From: Bolinopsis microptera
Taxonomy: Eukaryota; Ctenophora; Tentaculata; Lobata; Bolinopsidae
DNA length: 64,000 nt
Assembly (NCBI RefSeq): GCF_026151205.1
Contig: NC_087077.1
Span: 17,468,475-17,532,474, forward strand
Direction: 5' to 3'
This document shows, in pieces, positions 49,849 to 57,319 of the stretch. Every line of letters starts with the position of its first letter. Within the stretch, counting starts at the first letter, position 1. Below the pieces are notes generated by a model. That model ran no database searches. It had not been told where the DNA came from and worked only from the letters and a program-made list of their open reading frames with translations. The position numbers were made by a program, and so were the translations under genes.

Positions 49849-50207
49849 GTGAAACAAATTTTAGTGAAACAAATTTAAAATTTTATCCTTTATTTTACAA
49901 TCATAATATAATAATATTTATAAGCCTCCGTTTTGAAAGTTTTAAATTTTAATATATTCACATTTCTATTTAAAATTCAATTTAATGTATAAGTCAGTAA
50001 CTGGCCGCCAAAGCCGCGCATTCTTGAAAACATGATTAAATTGTTTATGATTATACGACAAACAAATTTTAGTGAAACAAATTTAAAATTTTATCCTTTA
50101 TTTTACAATCATAATATAATAATATTTATAAGCCTCCGTTTTGAAAGTTTTAAATTTTAATATATTCACATTTCTATTTAAAATTCAATTTAATGTATAA
50201 GTCAGTT
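49849..50207. repeat. 150-bp direct repeat upstream of the LINE
   Basis: A block of about 150 bp (gtgaaacaaattttagtgaa onwards through aatgtataagtcagt) occurs at 49849-50008 and again at 50060-50207, separated by about 55 bp. The opening motif, two tandem TTAGTGAAACAAATT units, has relatives at 48106-48150 and inverted at 57150-57190. Confidence 0.75.
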
Positions 50208-50360
50208 TAAACTAATTACAACACTACAAATCTATTACATTTATTGAGTTCAGGGAAAGTATGTCGTAATTCCCTCAAAAGGGTGTCGTAAGTTTACACG
50301 TTGCTTTAACAGCTGATTGTTTTGACTTTTGCTTGCTGTTTGTGTTAACTTTTGCTGAGT

Positions 50361-52589
50361 ATGGGTGACAACAACAAGAGTAACAAGAGAGCCTCATCTA
50401 TCACCAATAACTCTCGGATTCCTTCCCCTGCGGACAAAAAGGCAAAGTCCCGAATCAAGAACAACACTCCAGGACCAGAGGCGAAGGGAAAGGATGTATC
50501 TTGTGAAACTATTGTTGTAGACAGTGATGTAACACCCCCAAAGTTTGACAGTTCACACAGGGACAAGACGAAATGTCCATGTAGTAAGTCAATATCGTCA
50601 TGGAAGATTGACTGTGTAAAGTGCAAGCAATATTGGCACATAGACTGTCTAACTATGAATGGACTCAACCAGAAAAATGTCAACAGCATGACCAATTGGC
50701 ACTGCCCTTTTTGTTTGGTTTCACCAATCCCCACATTCGAAACTGCTGAAGATGTGTGTTATGTGTGTAGGAACACTCTGACACTTCAAAAATCTAACAG
50801 TCAGTGTGAGACAGCTATTGCCACAGAGAAGCTTAATACCATCACAGCTTTTGGTGAAAAGCTTGCAAAGGTTGACTTTGACAGTCTAAACGACAGCATT
50901 GCTGCCATCCAGAACCTTGACCTCCATATCAAGCACCTACTGGTAAGTGACAAGGGCACTGCTCCAGCATGGGTTGAAGTGATGGAAGGAGATCTAAAGC
51001 AGCTGAAAACTTCAGTTGACTCTTCACTCGGAAAGGTTTCTGAGTCTGATAGTGGCCTAACAGAACAGATTAAAGTGTTGAACAAGCAACTGCAGGACTT
51101 TTCTACTCCTCAAGTAAGTGCTCAATCTTCCTCCAAGACCAACGATCTCATGGAAAAAATAGAGAAGAATCTCCAGGAGCTAAATTCCAAGCAGTCTCTG
51201 GAGACGAATCAGGAGCTAACAGCCATTAGACAGTCTTTGAACACTCTTGAGCGAAATTCTTTGGCTTCTTCTGACCATTTAAACGTCCAAATTACCAGTT
51301 CTTCACTTGCCCCTGGCCCAGACCTAATAGCTAATGAGCATCTCCAATCAAAAGAAGAACCAGTTGTAGGCGCTATAGAAGAGTTTATTACCACAGAAGA
51401 GCAGGAAACTCTCCTCCTTGCCTGCCAATCACTTGACGAGGATTTTGTTGTGGAGGGAGCTCGTGCTGTGTATTCTTTGGGAGAACCATACAAGTATAAT
51501 GGCTCCAAGTCATCCAATGGCCAACTAGCTTCAACTAGCTTCTCCAATCTAGTGGACAAAATCAATGGTGCATTCTGTAGTGGTGAAAAACCGAAGATCA
51601 ATAGCCTGCTGATCAATCGCTTCAAAGAGGATGGCTCCCTACCGAAACACTCGGATGATGAAACTACCATCCACCCTGAATCCGAAATTTTCACTGTTTC
51701 TATTGGAGGCCAGTGCAACATCAAATTCTTTGATAAGAAGACGGATCATATGGCTCATGACCATACATGTGTGCCAAGATCCATGTATCGCATGACTCGA
51801 CGCAGCCAAGAGTTCTACAGCCACTGTATCGAGGATGGGGCAATAACTGGTGGGGTGAGATACAGCCTAACTTTTCGTTCAGTTAGCTTTAGAAACAGGA
51901 ACTCTACATGTATCATCGGAGACTCGCATACTGGTGGTCTCAAATTCGGGCTGGACCCCAAAAAATCATTTGGGCAGTGGCTCCCCGGAAAACAGTATTT
52001 TGCTCCGGTAGTGGGGGATATAAATCCTACAGTTTCATGTGGATACAGGAATGTTCTCTTGATGTGTGGTATAAATGATATCAGGAAACCTGAGATCAAA
52101 AATACCGCTGATATAAAGAACAATGTTTTTAAACCATTTGTTCAGAAAGTAGAAATGATCCAAGCGCTTAACCCCAAAGCAAATATATTTGTGTGTCCGC
52201 TGCTGCCAACCAAACTCGTTGAGCTAAATCGTAAAGTTGCACATTATAATGAATTAATTTTTAAGGAGCTGCTCCATTCCAACTTTGGTGTGACTTTGGT
52301 ACCTGGTTTTGACATGTTCTGTGATGAGGCTGGGCTCCTAAGCCAGCAATTCTCTAGGAACATTGGACGAAACCAGAGACCGGACTATTTACACCTCAAT
52401 TGGAGTGGTACAGCAAAACTGGGGGTTCTTATACGTAATACAATACTTTTAAGGATGAATGGAGGGACTGATAGAAGGAAGAAGAGATCGGATAAAGTTG
52501 ACAATCGCTTATACTCCCAGACGATGGGTGGTTCCTCTCCTGCTGCTGCTGCGACTCAACATGGGGAAGGTTACGTACCGTACCCATGA
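50361..52589 (+). CDS. LINE ORF1: PHD finger, coiled-coil region, AlkB-like oxygenase, SGNH hydrolase
   Basis: 742 residues from MGDNNKSNKRASS. Basic N-terminus, then a PHD-type zinc finger (about 70-120: CPCSKSISSW...CVKCKQYWHIDC...WHCPFC). A long polar helical region (about 150-340) may form a coiled coil. Residues about 375-508 match AlkB-type 2-oxoglutarate/Fe(II) oxygenases: INRFKEDGSLPKHSDDE supplies the HxD metal pair (H430, D432), the distal His is in SHCIED (H488), and RYSLTFR supplies the 2OG-binding arginines. Residues about 515-695 are an SGNH/GDSL hydrolase: IGDSH (Ser522), MCGINDIR (GxND block) and DYLHLNWSG (Asp675/His678). PHD and esterase modules are known in CR1-type ORF1 proteins; the AlkB module is the unusual part. 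The product probably binds the element's RNA. Confidence 0.88.
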   Translation: MGDNNKSNKRASSITNNSRIPSPADKKAKSRIKNNTPGPEAKGKDVSCETIVVDSDVTPPKFDSSHRDKTKCPCSKSISSWKIDCVKCKQYWHIDCLTMNGLNQKNVNSMTNWHCPFCLVSPIPTFETAEDVCYVCRNTLTLQKSNSQCETAIATEKLNTITAFGEKLAKVDFDSLNDSIAAIQNLDLHIKHLLVSDKGTAPAWVEVMEGDLKQLKTSVDSSLGKVSESDSGLTEQIKVLNKQLQDFSTPQVSAQSSSKTNDLMEKIEKNLQELNSKQSLETNQELTAIRQSLNTLERNSLASSDHLNVQITSSSLAPGPDLIANEHLQSKEEPVVGAIEEFITTEEQETLLLACQSLDEDFVVEGARAVYSLGEPYKYNGSKSSNGQLASTSFSNLVDKINGAFCSGEKPKINSLLINRFKEDGSLPKHSDDETTIHPESEIFTVSIGGQCNIKFFDKKTDHMAHDHTCVPRSMYRMTRRSQEFYSHCIEDGAITGGVRYSLTFRSVSFRNRNSTCIIGDSHTGGLKFGLDPKKSFGQWLPGKQYFAPVVGDINPTVSCGYRNVLLMCGINDIRKPEIKNTADIKNNVFKPFVQKVEMIQALNPKANIFVCPLLPTKLVELNRKVAHYNELIFKELLHSNFGVTLVPGFDMFCDEAGLLSQQFSRNIGRNQRPDYLHLNWSGTAKLGVLIRNTILLRMNGGTDRRKKRSDKVDNRLYSQTMGGSSPAAAATQHGEGYVPYP
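52586..52589 (+). promoter_or_regulatory. ATGA stop/start overlap between LINE ORFs
   Basis: The ORF2 ATG shares two bases with the ORF1 TGA. This arrangement fits termination-reinitiation coupling, as reported for some non-LTR retrotransposons. Confidence 0.7.
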
Positions 52590-55500
52590 ATAAATTGACC
52601 AAAGAGGTATGCCCTGTCTGTACAAAATTCATTTCCATTGGCCAATTCATTGCTGAATGTTGTAGGTGTGACTGTGCTATGCACCATAAATGCTATACTA
52701 AATCCAGTACAAACAAAATATATGAAGATTTTTACTGCCCTAACTGTGTACACTTAGCAAGTACTCGTTACAATCCGTTTATATATGAAGATACTGACTC
52801 TGAAAATAATAGTACTGACATTGATGAAACACTTGTAAACATCAACCGATTACTCAATAACTGTAACCCATATAGTGTTAAAGAATTTAATAAAACATTT
52901 TGCAACCAAATGAACGAGTACTCATCATTATTATTTCAAAATATCGATGGTAATAAATCTAACTTTGATACTCTGGCAATAGAACTACAGAGATATATGA
53001 AATTTTCGATCATTGCTTTAGCAGAAACAAATGAAGGCCCCGAATTAAGTGACCTTTACCAACTGACTGGATACAATAGTTTCTACCAAAACACTTTGCA
53101 AGATAAAAGAAAAGGCACTGGAGTCGCTCTTTATGTATGTGATACCCTCAGTGCTACAGTAAATGGCAATTTGTCCCATATATCTGAAAACCTAGAAACT
53201 CTATTTGTTACGATAAGCAGCAAGAATACTCCGGTCACTGTTGGTGTAGTGTATCGCCCTCCAAGTGGTGATGTAAATGTTGCATTATTAGAACTCTCAG
53301 CAATTCTCGATAATTTGCCGAAATGCAGTTACCTGGCAGGTGATTTCAACATTGATCTACATAATAAGGATAATGCGATTGTAAAACGTTATGAGGAAGT
53401 CCTGTTCAGTAGAGGATTTTTTCCCCTAATATCTCTGCCAACTCATGAGAAGCCAGGTTGTAAAGTATCGTGTATTGACAATATTATAACTAACGATGTA
53501 GAGAGTATAATAGCCTCAGGCACACTTACTGATCGTATATCCCACCACTCACCAGTCTTTCAAATATTTGAAAAGAGTATGGGATCCACTAAGAGTAACC
53601 TAAAATATAAACAATATTACGACTACTGTAAGTCTAATGTTACCTCTTTTGTAAAGGACTTGGAACATGAATTAGAGAATAAAGTAATTGACAACTTCAC
53701 GGTATTTCATGATGTTTTCAAAAGTAGTATCGATAAAACGTGTAAGTTGGCAACCCCTAAGTCTTCCAAAAGAACTACACAAAATAACCCATGGATCACA
53801 CCTGGGCTTATAGCCAAAATCAAGCATCAGCACCAACTCTATGACAATTGGGCTAAAGTTAGAAAGAAAAAATGTAAACTCGGTGAAACTGATTATAAAG
53901 GTGGAACATGTCAATGCTTGAAATGTTGTGAAAAACGTTCTAGATACAAAACTTATAAGGATTATAGAAGGATGGTTAAAAAAGATCGCAAAGATGTTCA
54001 AACTAAGTATTTCATGGGAAAATTTGCAGACACAAACGGTAATAGTAAGAAGACATGGGAACTGATTAATCAAATACGGGGCAAACAGAAACGGCAAATA
54101 AAACCACTGTTTACTATAAACAATGAGAAGATAACCAATCGTAGAGTAATAGCCAATGAATTTAATAAGTATTTTGTTTCTCTAGCGTCTAATTTAAACG
54201 GGGCATATAATGAAATTGGAGAACTAACTATTAACAATCTTCCTAGTTTTTATGACTACCTGCCTAGAGCAAACACGTCCAGTATTTTCATTAATGACTG
54301 TACAGCTGACGAGGTTAGAATGATTATATCTGAACTGAAGAATGGGAAGTCATCCGACATCCCAATACATGTAGTTAAAGAATCGTCTAAAGTGATCTGT
54401 CCTATACTATCTTTATTATACAGTGAATGCATGAGGAATGGAGTATTCCCAGATGATTTAAAGACTGGGAGAATCAGTCCGATCTATAAGAAGGATAATG
54501 AGGAATTGCTGGAAAACTATAGGCCAGTATCAACTTTAGCTGTTTTTGGTAAGATATTTGAAAAAATTATTTACAACAGACTGTATAGCTTCTTTCAGTC
54601 CCAGAAAATGATTTACGAGAACCAGTACGGATTTAGAAAAAATCACTCCACAAGCCATGCCCTCAACTCCTCAGTGAATTACATAGAATCCTGTCTTAGT
54701 AAAAAACTGCATGTACTTGGAATATTTATTGATCTATCTAAAGCGTTTGACACGATCTCACATGAAAAACTACTTAATAAACTAGACAACTATGGAATAC
54801 GTGGAAACGCCAATAGACTCATCGCTAGTTATCTCTCTAATAGATATCAATATGTCTCTGTACTGGGCGAAGAGTCTGACAAGCTGCCTGTTCTCTTTGG
54901 AGTTCCTCAAGGCTCTTGTCTCGGACCCTTGCTATTTATAATATATGTTAACGACTTATTTAGAACAACTGATCTGGGCAAGTTCATACTATTTGCAGAT
55001 GACACAAACATATTCGTAGTAGATGAATGTAGAAAAAAACTGTATGCAAGAGCAAACGAAATTCTCCGTTTGTTACACCAGTACATGAAATGCAATCTAT
55101 TACATATAAATATAAAGAAATGCTGCTACATTCACTTCAATCCGTCACGTACAGCTACTGATAATGAGGCAGATAACGAATCAGAATATATACTAACTCT
55201 AAATAATACGGTAATAAAGCAAGTTAAAGAGACCAAGTTTTTAGGTGTTATTATTGACGAAAAGCTAAAATGGGATGTTCAAATAAGAGCCCTCAACTCG
55301 AAACTTAGGTGTGAGATCGGAAGACTCAGTAGAATACGACACGTTATCCCGAAAAAACACCATAAAGAATTGTACCACACGTTATTTGAGTCACACCTAA
55401 GATTTGGAATATCGGTATGGGGTGGGTCGAGTAATAATATGCTTCAACCTATCTTCATCACTCAGAAAAAATGTATCAGAATACTATTTGGTGACCTTGA

Positions 55501-55954
55501 AGCATATCTAGATAAATTTAGAACATGTGCCAGAACACGTTGTATAGATGAACAAATCCTAGGAAGAGAATTCTTTGAAAAAGAGCATACAAAGCCGTTG
55601 TTTAACAAGAACGGCCTTCTTACCGTCCACAACCTGTACAAATACACATGTCTATTAGAACTGTTCAAAATTGTCAGATTAGAATCTCCAATCTCACTCC
55701 TATCTTTACTCCACAGATCACCATCACAAAGACGTTCAGACCAGTTCATCACCCCAAACCCATCCTCCTCTTTCATTTATCAATCAACAAAAATGTGGAA
55801 CGACTGTCGAAAAATTGACAGTATGATAAGCTTTACTAAGTCAACGAACTTAGTTAAAGTAACACTGAAAAGTGAGCTACTCAAGATACAGTCCAGGTAC
55901 GAAGATTTAGAATGGACAGAATTAAACTTCGATAAGAATGAGCTTGTATTTTAA
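52586..55954 (+). CDS. LINE ORF2: PHD-like finger, AP endonuclease, reverse transcriptase
   Basis: 1122 residues. N-terminal C4HC3 PHD-like cluster (residues 9-54: CPVC...CCRCDCAMHHKC...FYCPNC). AP-type endonuclease about 112-330, with AETNE (Glu147), VVYRPPSG, GDFNID (252-257) and a final motif SHHSPV where most family members have SDHxP. A Cys-rich insert (C430, C442, C444, C447, C448) precedes the polymerase. Reverse transcriptase about 575-880: YRPVSTL, FIDLSKAFDT, GVPQGSCLGP and the catalytic FADDTN (803-808). Then TKFLGVIID and a long C-terminal thumb region. Start ATG overlaps the ORF1 stop. It would nick target DNA and prime reverse transcription there. Confidence 0.92.
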   Translation: MNKLTKEVCPVCTKFISIGQFIAECCRCDCAMHHKCYTKSSTNKIYEDFYCPNCVHLASTRYNPFIYEDTDSENNSTDIDETLVNINRLLNNCNPYSVKEFNKTFCNQMNEYSSLLFQNIDGNKSNFDTLAIELQRYMKFSIIALAETNEGPELSDLYQLTGYNSFYQNTLQDKRKGTGVALYVCDTLSATVNGNLSHISENLETLFVTISSKNTPVTVGVVYRPPSGDVNVALLELSAILDNLPKCSYLAGDFNIDLHNKDNAIVKRYEEVLFSRGFFPLISLPTHEKPGCKVSCIDNIITNDVESIIASGTLTDRISHHSPVFQIFEKSMGSTKSNLKYKQYYDYCKSNVTSFVKDLEHELENKVIDNFTVFHDVFKSSIDKTCKLATPKSSKRTTQNNPWITPGLIAKIKHQHQLYDNWAKVRKKKCKLGETDYKGGTCQCLKCCEKRSRYKTYKDYRRMVKKDRKDVQTKYFMGKFADTNGNSKKTWELINQIRGKQKRQIKPLFTINNEKITNRRVIANEFNKYFVSLASNLNGAYNEIGELTINNLPSFYDYLPRANTSSIFINDCTADEVRMIISELKNGKSSDIPIHVVKESSKVICPILSLLYSECMRNGVFPDDLKTGRISPIYKKDNEELLENYRPVSTLAVFGKIFEKIIYNRLYSFFQSQKMIYENQYGFRKNHSTSHALNSSVNYIESCLSKKLHVLGIFIDLSKAFDTISHEKLLNKLDNYGIRGNANRLIASYLSNRYQYVSVLGEESDKLPVLFGVPQGSCLGPLLFIIYVNDLFRTTDLGKFILFADDTNIFVVDECRKKLYARANEILRLLHQYMKCNLLHINIKKCCYIHFNPSRTATDNEADNESEYILTLNNTVIKQVKETKFLGVIIDEKLKWDVQIRALNSKLRCEIGRLSRIRHVIPKKHHKELYHTLFESHLRFGISVWGGSSNNMLQPIFITQKKCIRILFGDLEAYLDKFRTCARTRCIDEQILGREFFEKEHTKPLFNKNGLLTVHNLYKYTCLLELFKIVRLESPISLLSLLHRSPSQRRSDQFITPNPSSSFIYQSTKMWNDCRKIDSMISFTKSTNLVKVTLKSELLKIQSRYEDLEWTELNFDKNELVF

Positions 55955-57319
55955 AACAGAGTCCTTTGACTTTATTATTTTGAAATTGAAGAATCGTCTG
56001 GCCATAACTCATTTCGTTCGCATTACAGATTCACATTCACTTTCATTTTCACTATCACGCACAGTACAGGGTCATACCTCAATACCAAATTATTATAGGG
56101 CACAAGAACAAATTTGTTTACAATTATCAAAATTTGTTGAGCCCAGCAGCTTACTTCCTATCCTCTCTTCCCCCGTCGTCTGGAGCGTGTGATTTTTGTT
56201 GATATCCGAGCTCTTGTTTTTATCTTTTGGTTAACTTTCTGTGATTGGACTCGGTATTTTCGTCCCCGCCGAGTGGACGATGCTTGCTCGCCAGTTAAGC
56301 TATACTTTAGATGACACTAATTTCTACAAACCACAAAATATTAAATATAAAATGTGTCCAGTATGGCGCAAATGCATCATTTGATAATTTCTCGACGCTG
56401 TCGTCGGGGTGAGAGTTATCTGAACCAACTGCATGCCCCTACGATTGCGTCACCACTGGTGAGCAAGCATTTGTTTGTTGTTTAGTTGTGTTGGAAGGGA
56501 ACATTACTTGATTAATTCATCCATTAGGATTTTAATAACGATGAGCTAAGATATACCGTTCATCTTAGACTATTGGATCAATCTTATTATATGATTAGAT
56601 TTTATAAACGAACCTGGCATACAAAAGATTGTAATGCGGAGGTTGGCTGGCTCTTCTATAATAAATACGACACTCCAACTTACAGAATGCTTGCTAGAGA
56701 TAAAACAAAATATTATCAGACTATACATGCAGCATGAGTAACTGGTGGATAAGCCTTCGGTAAAAACGGATCCGGAAAAGTCAATGCGGCACTCGGGTCC
56801 TTGGTATTGTCGTCGGTATATTGTCCATTATTTACGTTCTGCTTTCATAGTTCAAACAATAGTGAGCTCTAAATATACAGCTTTAAACCGATTAAGTATG
56901 AATGAATGAAATACATGACAATCCGCACTCCTATAATTCAAAAGCATGAGTAACTCGTAGTGATGTACGATTTCTAGAAAGTTTAAATTAAATTTGGCGC
57001 TCACAGGTCCTCGTGATCATGTGATCGCCGCATAATGTTCTGTAAATGCGCAGGGCACCTTCAAGCTTAAATTATTCACCATACTGAGGCAGTCACCCAA
57101 CGCGCGGCTTTATTTTTATGATATGATATGTTTTGATTGTTATTAATAAATACCAAAATTTAAATTTGTTTTACTAAATTTGTTTTACTAAAAATAAATT
57201 TAAACTATCCGTGGTTTTTTTAAAATAAATTATAATCCTACCTAAATCCAAAGCCAGCTTTGTAAAATTTATTATTAGATCATAATATATCGTCAATTCT
57301 CAATAATTTTTCCACGTTG
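55955..57319. other. LINE 3' UTR and intergenic DNA
   Basis: The first 300-400 bp are probably LINE 3' UTR. After that no gene is seen. At 57150-57190 there is an inverted copy of the AGTAAAACAAATTT doublet found at 48106 and 49849. Confidence 0.45.

What the first reader, a model, noticed from the sequence alone, without database searches (positions are those of the whole stretch)
50361..52589. LINE ORF1 carrying an AlkB-like oxygenase next to an SGNH hydrolase and a PHD finger
ORF1 of an intact LINE has a complete AlkB-type residue set (HSD, distal His in SHCIED, RYSLTFR) followed by a complete GDS/GxND/DxxH hydrolase. PHD and esterase modules have been described in CR1-type ORF1 proteins. 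A 2OG/Fe(II) oxygenase of the nucleic-acid-demethylase type would give the element its own RNA or DNA repair/demethylation activity, for example to remove host-imposed or damage methylation from its RNA. Both enzymes look catalytically competent, which implies selection.
Basis: partly seen in the sequence, partly recalled or inferred. Interest (0 to 1): 0.8.

Follow-up and report, generated by a model that had tools for sequence, protein, structure and literature searches.

The report
Jumping gene carrying a demethylase-like enzyme
A recently active jumping gene in a comb jelly carries, inside its first protein, what looks like a working enzyme of the kind cells use to strip methyl groups off DNA and RNA, and related jumping genes of other kinds in the same animal carry one too.

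Summary

Following it outwards: an AlkB+SGNH pair recurs in two further LINE lineages of the same genome (RTs 25-27% identical) and in a Helitron, in reversed order. The tree does not settle the number of captures.

Ten searches of an open-access library (partial listings) showed no AlkB in a non-LTR retrotransposon; an orchid Ty3/Gypsy AlkB and fungal TET-carrying DNA transposons are the nearest precedents.

Most likely work: ALKBH2/3-type reversal of Watson-Crick-face methylation (m1A, m3C) on the element's single-stranded intermediate before copying. Identity is well supported; substrate and role are inferred.

The parts
50244..57192 (+). LINE copy (5'UTR, ORF1, ORF2, 3'UTR, tandem-repeat tail)
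   Evidence: alignment of copies; 5' end at 50244, where 10 of 13 other copies checked continue for about 32 more nt; 3' end from loci L031 and L032
50361..52589 (+). ORF1, 742 aa: PHD - coiled coil - AlkB - SGNH
50574..50714 (+). PHD-type zinc finger (residues 72-118, C4HC3 pattern)
   Evidence: searches (PF00628 E=0.1, below cut-off; 1wem 5.4e-3), AlphaFold confidence 85-92 over 71-110 and 79 over 111-120
50769..51263 (+). coiled-coil region (helices, residues 137-301)
   Evidence: secondary structure of the model
51342..51896 (+). AlkB-type 2OG/Fe(II) oxygenase domain (residues 328-512)
51648..51662 (+). HSDDE (residues 430-434): iron ligands H430 and D432, conserved E434
   Evidence: H, D and E each in 110 of 111 rows, the other row a gap; D433 is D in 73 and N in 31
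51822..51824 (+). distal iron ligand H488
   Evidence: 110 of 111
51858..51878 (+). RYSLTFR (residues 500-506): 2OG-binding R500 and R506
   Evidence: R500, S502, T504, R506 in 111 of 111
51900..52460 (+). SGNH hydrolase domain (residues 514-700)
51918..51926 (+). GDS with nucleophile S522
   Evidence: S522 in 111 of 111
52068..52079 (+). GIND with N572
   Evidence: N572 in 111 of 111
52383..52394 (+). DYLH with D675 and H678
   Evidence: D675 109 of 111, H678 110 of 111
52586..55954 (+). ORF2, 1122 aa, overlapping ORF1 by ATGA
52610..52747 (+). second PHD/RING-like zinc finger at the ORF2 N-terminus (residues 9-54)
   Evidence: sequence pattern; PF14446 0.028, below cut-off
52940..53401 (+). 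APE-type endonuclease
   Evidence: PF03372 5.7e-4, below cut-off
54488..55255 (+). reverse transcriptase
   Evidence: PF00078 1.4e-37
57161..57192 (+). 3' tail of 14-nt tandem units

Best explanation
It is a ctenophore APE-type LINE whose esterase-type ORF1 protein has gained an AlkB-family 2OG/Fe(II) oxygenase of the ALKBH2/ALKBH3 kind. Shown here by computation: domain identity, a complete and conserved active site, purifying selection in the one pair of subfamilies that could be tested, recent copies, and recurrence of an AlkB+SGNH pair in two further LINE lineages and a Helitron. Inferred: ORF1p multimerises by its coiled coil on the element RNA; the AlkB domain, with Fe(II) and 2-oxoglutarate, oxidises methyl groups from the Watson-Crick face of exposed bases (m1A, m3C) of the bound RNA, and perhaps of the new cDNA, so that the reverse transcriptase is not stalled during target-primed reverse transcription; the SGNH domain tethers the particle to membranes, as proposed for the zebrafish ZfL2-1 esterase.
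Against: No activity, expression or RNA-binding data. Base-pocket residue D433 is N in 31 of 111 rows, so substrate range may vary. Z differences between ALKBH3 and ALKBH5 are only about 3, and Foldseek ranks ALKBH6 (6.4e-12) just above ALKBH2 and ALKBH3. In deep comparisons, with pS saturated, AlkB changes more than SGNH (pN 0.35-0.44 against 0.27-0.28). The profile ranking compares with solved structures only. An orchid Gypsy AlkB was reported as an m6A demethylase (PMC9289625).
Confidence: 0.45

Rival explanations
1. Counter-silencing: the AlkB removes a host-applied mark (m6A on RNA, 6mA on DNA, or m1A) that marks element transcripts or copies for repression, as proposed for the orchid Gypsy AlkB and for fungal TET/JBP transposons.
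For: Direct precedents: orchid Ty3/Gypsy AlkB with in vitro demethylase activity (PMC9289625); TET/JBP in many fungal DNA transposons (PMC12730594). High copy number and presence in several element kinds fit an arms race.
Against: Resemblance is to ALKBH2/3 more than to ALKBH5; FTO and ALKBH5 are absent from the profile list, which does not exclude m6A activity. I have no evidence that ctenophores use such a mark against transposons.
Confidence: 0.28
2. The AlkB fold serves mainly as a nucleic-acid-binding module that replaces the missing RRM of esterase-type ORF1 proteins; oxidation is secondary.
For: Esterase-containing ORF1ps in Repbase (2013) had no structural RNA-binding domain (PMC3905857).
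Against: A pure binding role does not explain why the iron and 2OG ligands are among the most conserved positions of the domain.
Confidence: 0.12
3. The oxygenase acts on a protein or lipid rather than a nucleic acid, in a two-step pathway with the neighbouring SGNH hydrolase.
For: The two domains recur together in different orders in three LINE lineages and a Helitron; some AlkB homologs have protein substrates (ALKBH4, table in PMC11431407).
Against: Closest to the nucleic-acid repair members ALKBH2/3 by profile and by VIA-align. SGNH domains are reported in such elements without AlkB (PMC3905857, PMC4021074; 'oxygenase' and 'alkb' 0 times in either text).
Confidence: 0.12
4. A host AlkB gene fragment caught by chance, or an assembly artefact.
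For: None beyond the general possibility.
Against: Near-identical and divergent copies, homologs in Mnemiopsis, constraint.
Confidence: 0.01

Closest known systems
Type IV (esterase) ORF1 of CR1 and L2 LINEs, e.g. ZfL2-1 (PMC4120745, PMC3905857)
   Same: Coiled coil followed by SGNH esterase; the SGNH part hits 4c1b, an ORF1-encoded esterase structure; PHD fingers occur in the same superfamily.
   Different: An AlkB oxygenase sits between coiled coil and esterase; 'oxygenase' and 'alkb' occur 0 times in the main text of either paper.
Orchid Ty3/Gypsy elements with an AlkB ORF (PMC9289625)
   Same: A retrotransposon carrying an AlkB-type 2OG oxygenase.
   Different: LTR element of plants, AlkB in a separate ORF2, reported as m6A demethylase; here a non-LTR element of an animal, fused in ORF1 with SGNH.
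Human ALKBH3 / ALKBH2
   Different: Only 19-20% identity in the best structural alignments; S502 stands where ALKBH3 has N (RVNLTFR); fused in a transposon protein.
Fungal DNA transposons with TET/JBP dioxygenase (PMC12730594)
   Same: Mobile elements, Helitrons among them, that acquired a 2OG base-oxidising enzyme several times.
   Different: TET/JBP rather than AlkB; fungi; that paper notes no retrotransposon with TET/JBP.
Fish texim SGNH genes beside Helitrons (PMC4021074)
   Same: SGNH hydrolase associated with a Helitron and related to CR1 esterases.
   Different: No oxygenase named: 'alkb' and 'oxygenase' have 0 occurrences in that text.

Membership tests
AlkB family of 2OG/Fe(II) oxygenases | Profile match above the curated cut-off | tested here: met
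   PF13532 47.3 bits against 31.2
AlkB family of 2OG/Fe(II) oxygenases | AlkB fold (double-stranded beta helix with nucleotide-recognition lid) | tested here: met
AlkB family of 2OG/Fe(II) oxygenases | HxD...H iron ligands and 2OG arginines | tested here: met
   110 of 111 rows with the full set; the other row is a fragment without the domain start
AlkB family of 2OG/Fe(II) oxygenases | Oxidative dealkylation activity | not testable with these tools
   needs purified protein
ALKBH2/ALKBH3-type repair enzymes | HxDDE motif | tested here: inconclusive
   present in the window protein; in the family D433 is D in 73, N in 31 of 111
ALKBH2/ALKBH3-type repair enzymes | Groups with ALKBH2/3 in a tree | tested here: inconclusive
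   tree of 28 domains had no named ALKBH references apart from three presumed host genes
Esterase-type (Type IV) LINE ORF1 | SGNH domain with catalytic S, D, H | tested here: met
   S522-D675-H678 in 109 of 111; 4c1b hit; single-sequence Pfam match below cut-off
Esterase-type (Type IV) LINE ORF1 | Coiled coil before the esterase | tested here: inconclusive
   long helices 137-301 in the model; no dedicated coiled-coil program was run
APE-type non-LTR retrotransposon (CR1/L2/Jockey or RTE group) | APE endonuclease and RT in ORF2, no RNase H | tested here: met
   RVT_1 1.4e-37, Exo_endo_phos 5.7e-4 (below its cut-off), no RNase H family listed
CR1 or L2 clade | RT phylogeny with reference elements | not tested
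   no named reference RTs were at hand; clade left open
Helitron (L038/L049) | Helitron-like Rep and PIF1 helicase | tested here: met
   PF14214 3.1e-22, PF05970 2.8e-22

The most novel reading that the evidence does not exclude
AlkB plus SGNH is a transferable accessory cassette of ctenophore mobile elements: carried by three deeply diverged LINE lineages and, in reversed order, by a Helitron, it gives both RNA- and DNA-based transposons their own direct-reversal repair of the single-stranded intermediate that they all pass through. This would be the first transposon-encoded nucleic-acid repair system shared across transposon classes.
Probability: 0.35. Interest if true: 0.88.

Novelty: new variant of a known kind. 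Interest (0 to 1): 0.76.

Why it matters
LINE ORF1 proteins are poorly understood. An ORF1 with a conserved, testable base-oxidising enzyme makes two questions concrete: whether chemical damage or host methylation of the RNA template limits retrotransposition, and whether transposons carry their own remedy. The recurrence in a Helitron of the same genome separates readings that are specific to RNA from readings that concern single-stranded nucleic acid in general. It may also matter for annotation: AlkB-domain proteins of ctenophores named hypothetical (9 Mnemiopsis rows) are likely transposon ORFs.

Tried and rejected
Chance motif match: rejected by Pfam, profile, fold and conservation. Simple dN/dS over whole ORF1: rejected as misleading, because window and L011 differ as mosaics: pS 0.021 over residues 1-360, 0.277 over 361-513, 0.771 over 514-705; I used the AlkB segment alone. 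Over 1-360 no constraint is detectable (5 synonymous and 13 nonsynonymous differences, ratio 0.72, p=0.57). SGNH dS is saturated, so no ratio is given there. The other loci compared (L013, L015, L016, L020, L023, L026, L028) show nearly the same differences over AlkB and SGNH as L011, so they are not independent tests. L030 (46% family) fell out of the codon comparisons because my script required the letters GDS and this copy reads SDS.

A claim that I drafted and dropped: 'at least two captures'. In the tree (midpoint-rooted, two long branches) the three presumed host genes lie on one side of a branch (97/84), so a single origin of all the transposon AlkBs is not excluded, although lineage 3 is nearest to the host genes (99/95). 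That these three are host genes is itself presumed from short frames without SGNH.

RT clade assignment: not possible with what was held. Target-site duplication of the window copy: looked at by eye in the flanks, none convincing. ALKBH5 and FTO are absent from the profile list; this does not exclude m6A activity. The fold search used a 742-residue model, so query-normalised TM is low (about 0.2); I quote Z. Taxonomic range: among names that state an organism, and the listed 120 of 292 rows, only Bolinopsis and Mnemiopsis occur; most rows are unnamed, so other hosts are not excluded.

Results against: 9 of 280 held proteins lack the full active-site pattern: five lack the region or most of it (P0053, P0054, P0148, P0175, P0180) and four carry changes but keep an HxD (P0149, P0159, P0198, P0211). 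PHD cysteines and histidine are kept in 69-87 of 96-100 rows; 27 of 97 have a gap at the central ones. words came from the AlkB+SGNH part, which favours relatives that keep it. The SGNH matches of the window ORF1, lineages 2 and 3 and the Helitron are all below Pfam's cut-offs.

Literature: (open-access PMC only; seven of the ten held more papers than were listed) showed no non-LTR element with AlkB; Repbase, subscription papers and preprints were not searched.

Full report
WHAT IS THERE. The window lies in a 264.7-Mb genome at G000:C6:17468475-17532474. A database protein 98% identical to ORF1 over the searched part is annotated LOC134813758 of Bolinopsis microptera, so the genome is very probably that ctenophore. 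ORF1 spans 50361-52589 (742 aa) and ORF2 52586-55954 (1122 aa), overlapping by ATGA. ORF2 has RT (1.4e-37) and a weaker endonuclease match, and no RNase H was listed. The copy runs from 50244 to about 57192 and ends in a 14-nt tandem tail. Of 13 other copies checked, 10 carry about 32 further nt at the 5' end (L006, L009 and L011 do not), so this copy is slightly truncated. Copy L001 is 99.84% identical over 3843 bases: recent activity.

ACTIVE SITES ARE KEPT. In 111 aligned rows (110 of the 114 homologs plus the window protein), H430, D432, E434 and H488 are each in 110, and R500, S502, T504, R506, S522 and N572 in 111; the SGNH triad is complete in 109. The one row without the iron ligands, P0053, is a fragment. 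Position 433 is D in 73 and N in 31. Of all 280 proteins held, 271 match the wider pattern; the nine others are told under Tried and rejected.

SELECTION AND MOSAICISM. Against the 88%-identical subfamily L011, synonymous difference is 0.021 over residues 1-360, 0.277 over 361-513 and 0.771 over 514-705. The steps fall near the borders of the AlkB domain, which suggests exchange of modules between subfamilies, in line with the reticulate ORF1 evolution described in PMC4120745 (passages, abstract among them). Within 361-513, dN/dS is 0.137 (27.5 synonymous differences on 99.2 sites, 16.5 nonsynonymous on 359.8; Fisher p=2.5e-10). This is one independent comparison. In deeper ones pS is saturated, and AlkB (pN 0.35-0.44) changes more than SGNH (0.27-0.28).

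BEYOND THE WINDOW. A search with the distant homolog P0115 found 103 proteins (itself included) of a second lineage, 9 of them named Mnemiopsis leidyi; a joint AlkB+SGNH profile found 292 (120 listed). In the window's own genome PF13532 gives 151 matches from the 150 scored of 587 first-look candidates; every listed row is over the cut-off, presumed host genes included, and the window's own locus is not among them, so this is a lower bound. I read some of these. Lineage 2 (L037): ORF1 624 aa with AlkB 3.6e-18 and a sub-threshold SGNH match, ORF2 1006 aa with endonuclease and RT. Lineage 3 (L043 with L048): AlkB 5.7e-22, a coiled-coil-like region and an SGNH-like part that is weak (E 0.007, below cut-off), then an ORF2 of 1177 aa with endonuclease and RT. 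The best BLASTP alignments between the ORF2s of the three lineages are 25-27% identical. L038/L049 is a Helitron: its long ORF carries a sub-threshold SGNH match (8.1e-6) and then AlkB (4.5e-21), followed by Helitron_like_N (3.1e-22) and, in the adjoining stretch, a PIF1 helicase (2.8e-22). I read one such Helitron; five other hits lie in frames of 2225-3366 aa but were not read.

A tree of 28 AlkB domains puts lineage 1 on one side of a branch (98/96), lineage 3 beside three presumed host AlkB genes (99/95), and the Helitron on a long branch among lineage 2 (92/74, not starred). The three host genes are themselves on one side of a branch (97/84), so a single capture of all the transposon AlkBs is not excluded; the number of captures is open.

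HOW IT PROBABLY WORKS. Published ALKBH2/3 substrates are m1A and m3C, formed mainly in ssDNA and RNA, and these lesions block polymerases (PMC11431407, passages). LINEs copy an RNA template; Helitrons have single-stranded transposition (PMC12730594, passage). A direct-reversal enzyme on the ORF1p particle would keep the template readable; the same activity would serve the Helitron. This is inference. The rival with the best precedent is counter-silencing, as in orchid Gypsy elements (PMC9289625, passages) and fungal TET/JBP transposons (PMC12730594, passages).

NOVELTY. Five ORF1 types are described for the Jockey superfamily (PMC4120745, passages); the words oxygenase, alkb, 2og and demethylase do not occur in that main text. 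A study of esterase ORF1 proteins found no structural RNA-binding domain among them (PMC3905857, abstract and sections 12 and 13) and does not name AlkB. Ten literature searches showed no non-LTR element with AlkB in their listings, several of which were partial. I file it as a new variant of a known kind: an esterase-type LINE ORF1 with a new enzyme.

Noticed in passing
L038 (G000:C10:16871000-16880900) and L049: A Helitron whose long ORF carries SGNH then AlkB ahead of Rep and PIF1 helicase; five other AlkB hits lie in frames of 2225-3366 aa.
   Followed up: partly
L042, L043, L046, L048: A third LINE lineage with AlkB at the front of ORF1, a coiled-coil-like region and a weak SGNH-like domain behind it; its AlkB lies nearest to presumed host AlkB genes.
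   Followed up: partly
window 50361-52589 against L011: Mosaic ORF1: three segments of very different synonymous divergence, with steps near the two borders of the AlkB domain.
   Followed up: partly
window 52610-52747: A second PHD/RING-like zinc finger at the N-terminus of ORF2.
   Followed up: no
window 49852-49998 and 50060-50206: Exact 147-bp direct repeat just upstream of the LINE, beside a short tandem array that resembles the reverse complement of this LINE's tail.
   Followed up: no
L030: In the 46%-identical subfamily the SGNH motif GDS reads SDS, so its hydrolase may differ.
   Followed up: no
L036: A gag-like frame with zinc knuckles lies on the same strand as a lineage-2 AlkB ORF1, possibly a nested element.
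   Followed up: no
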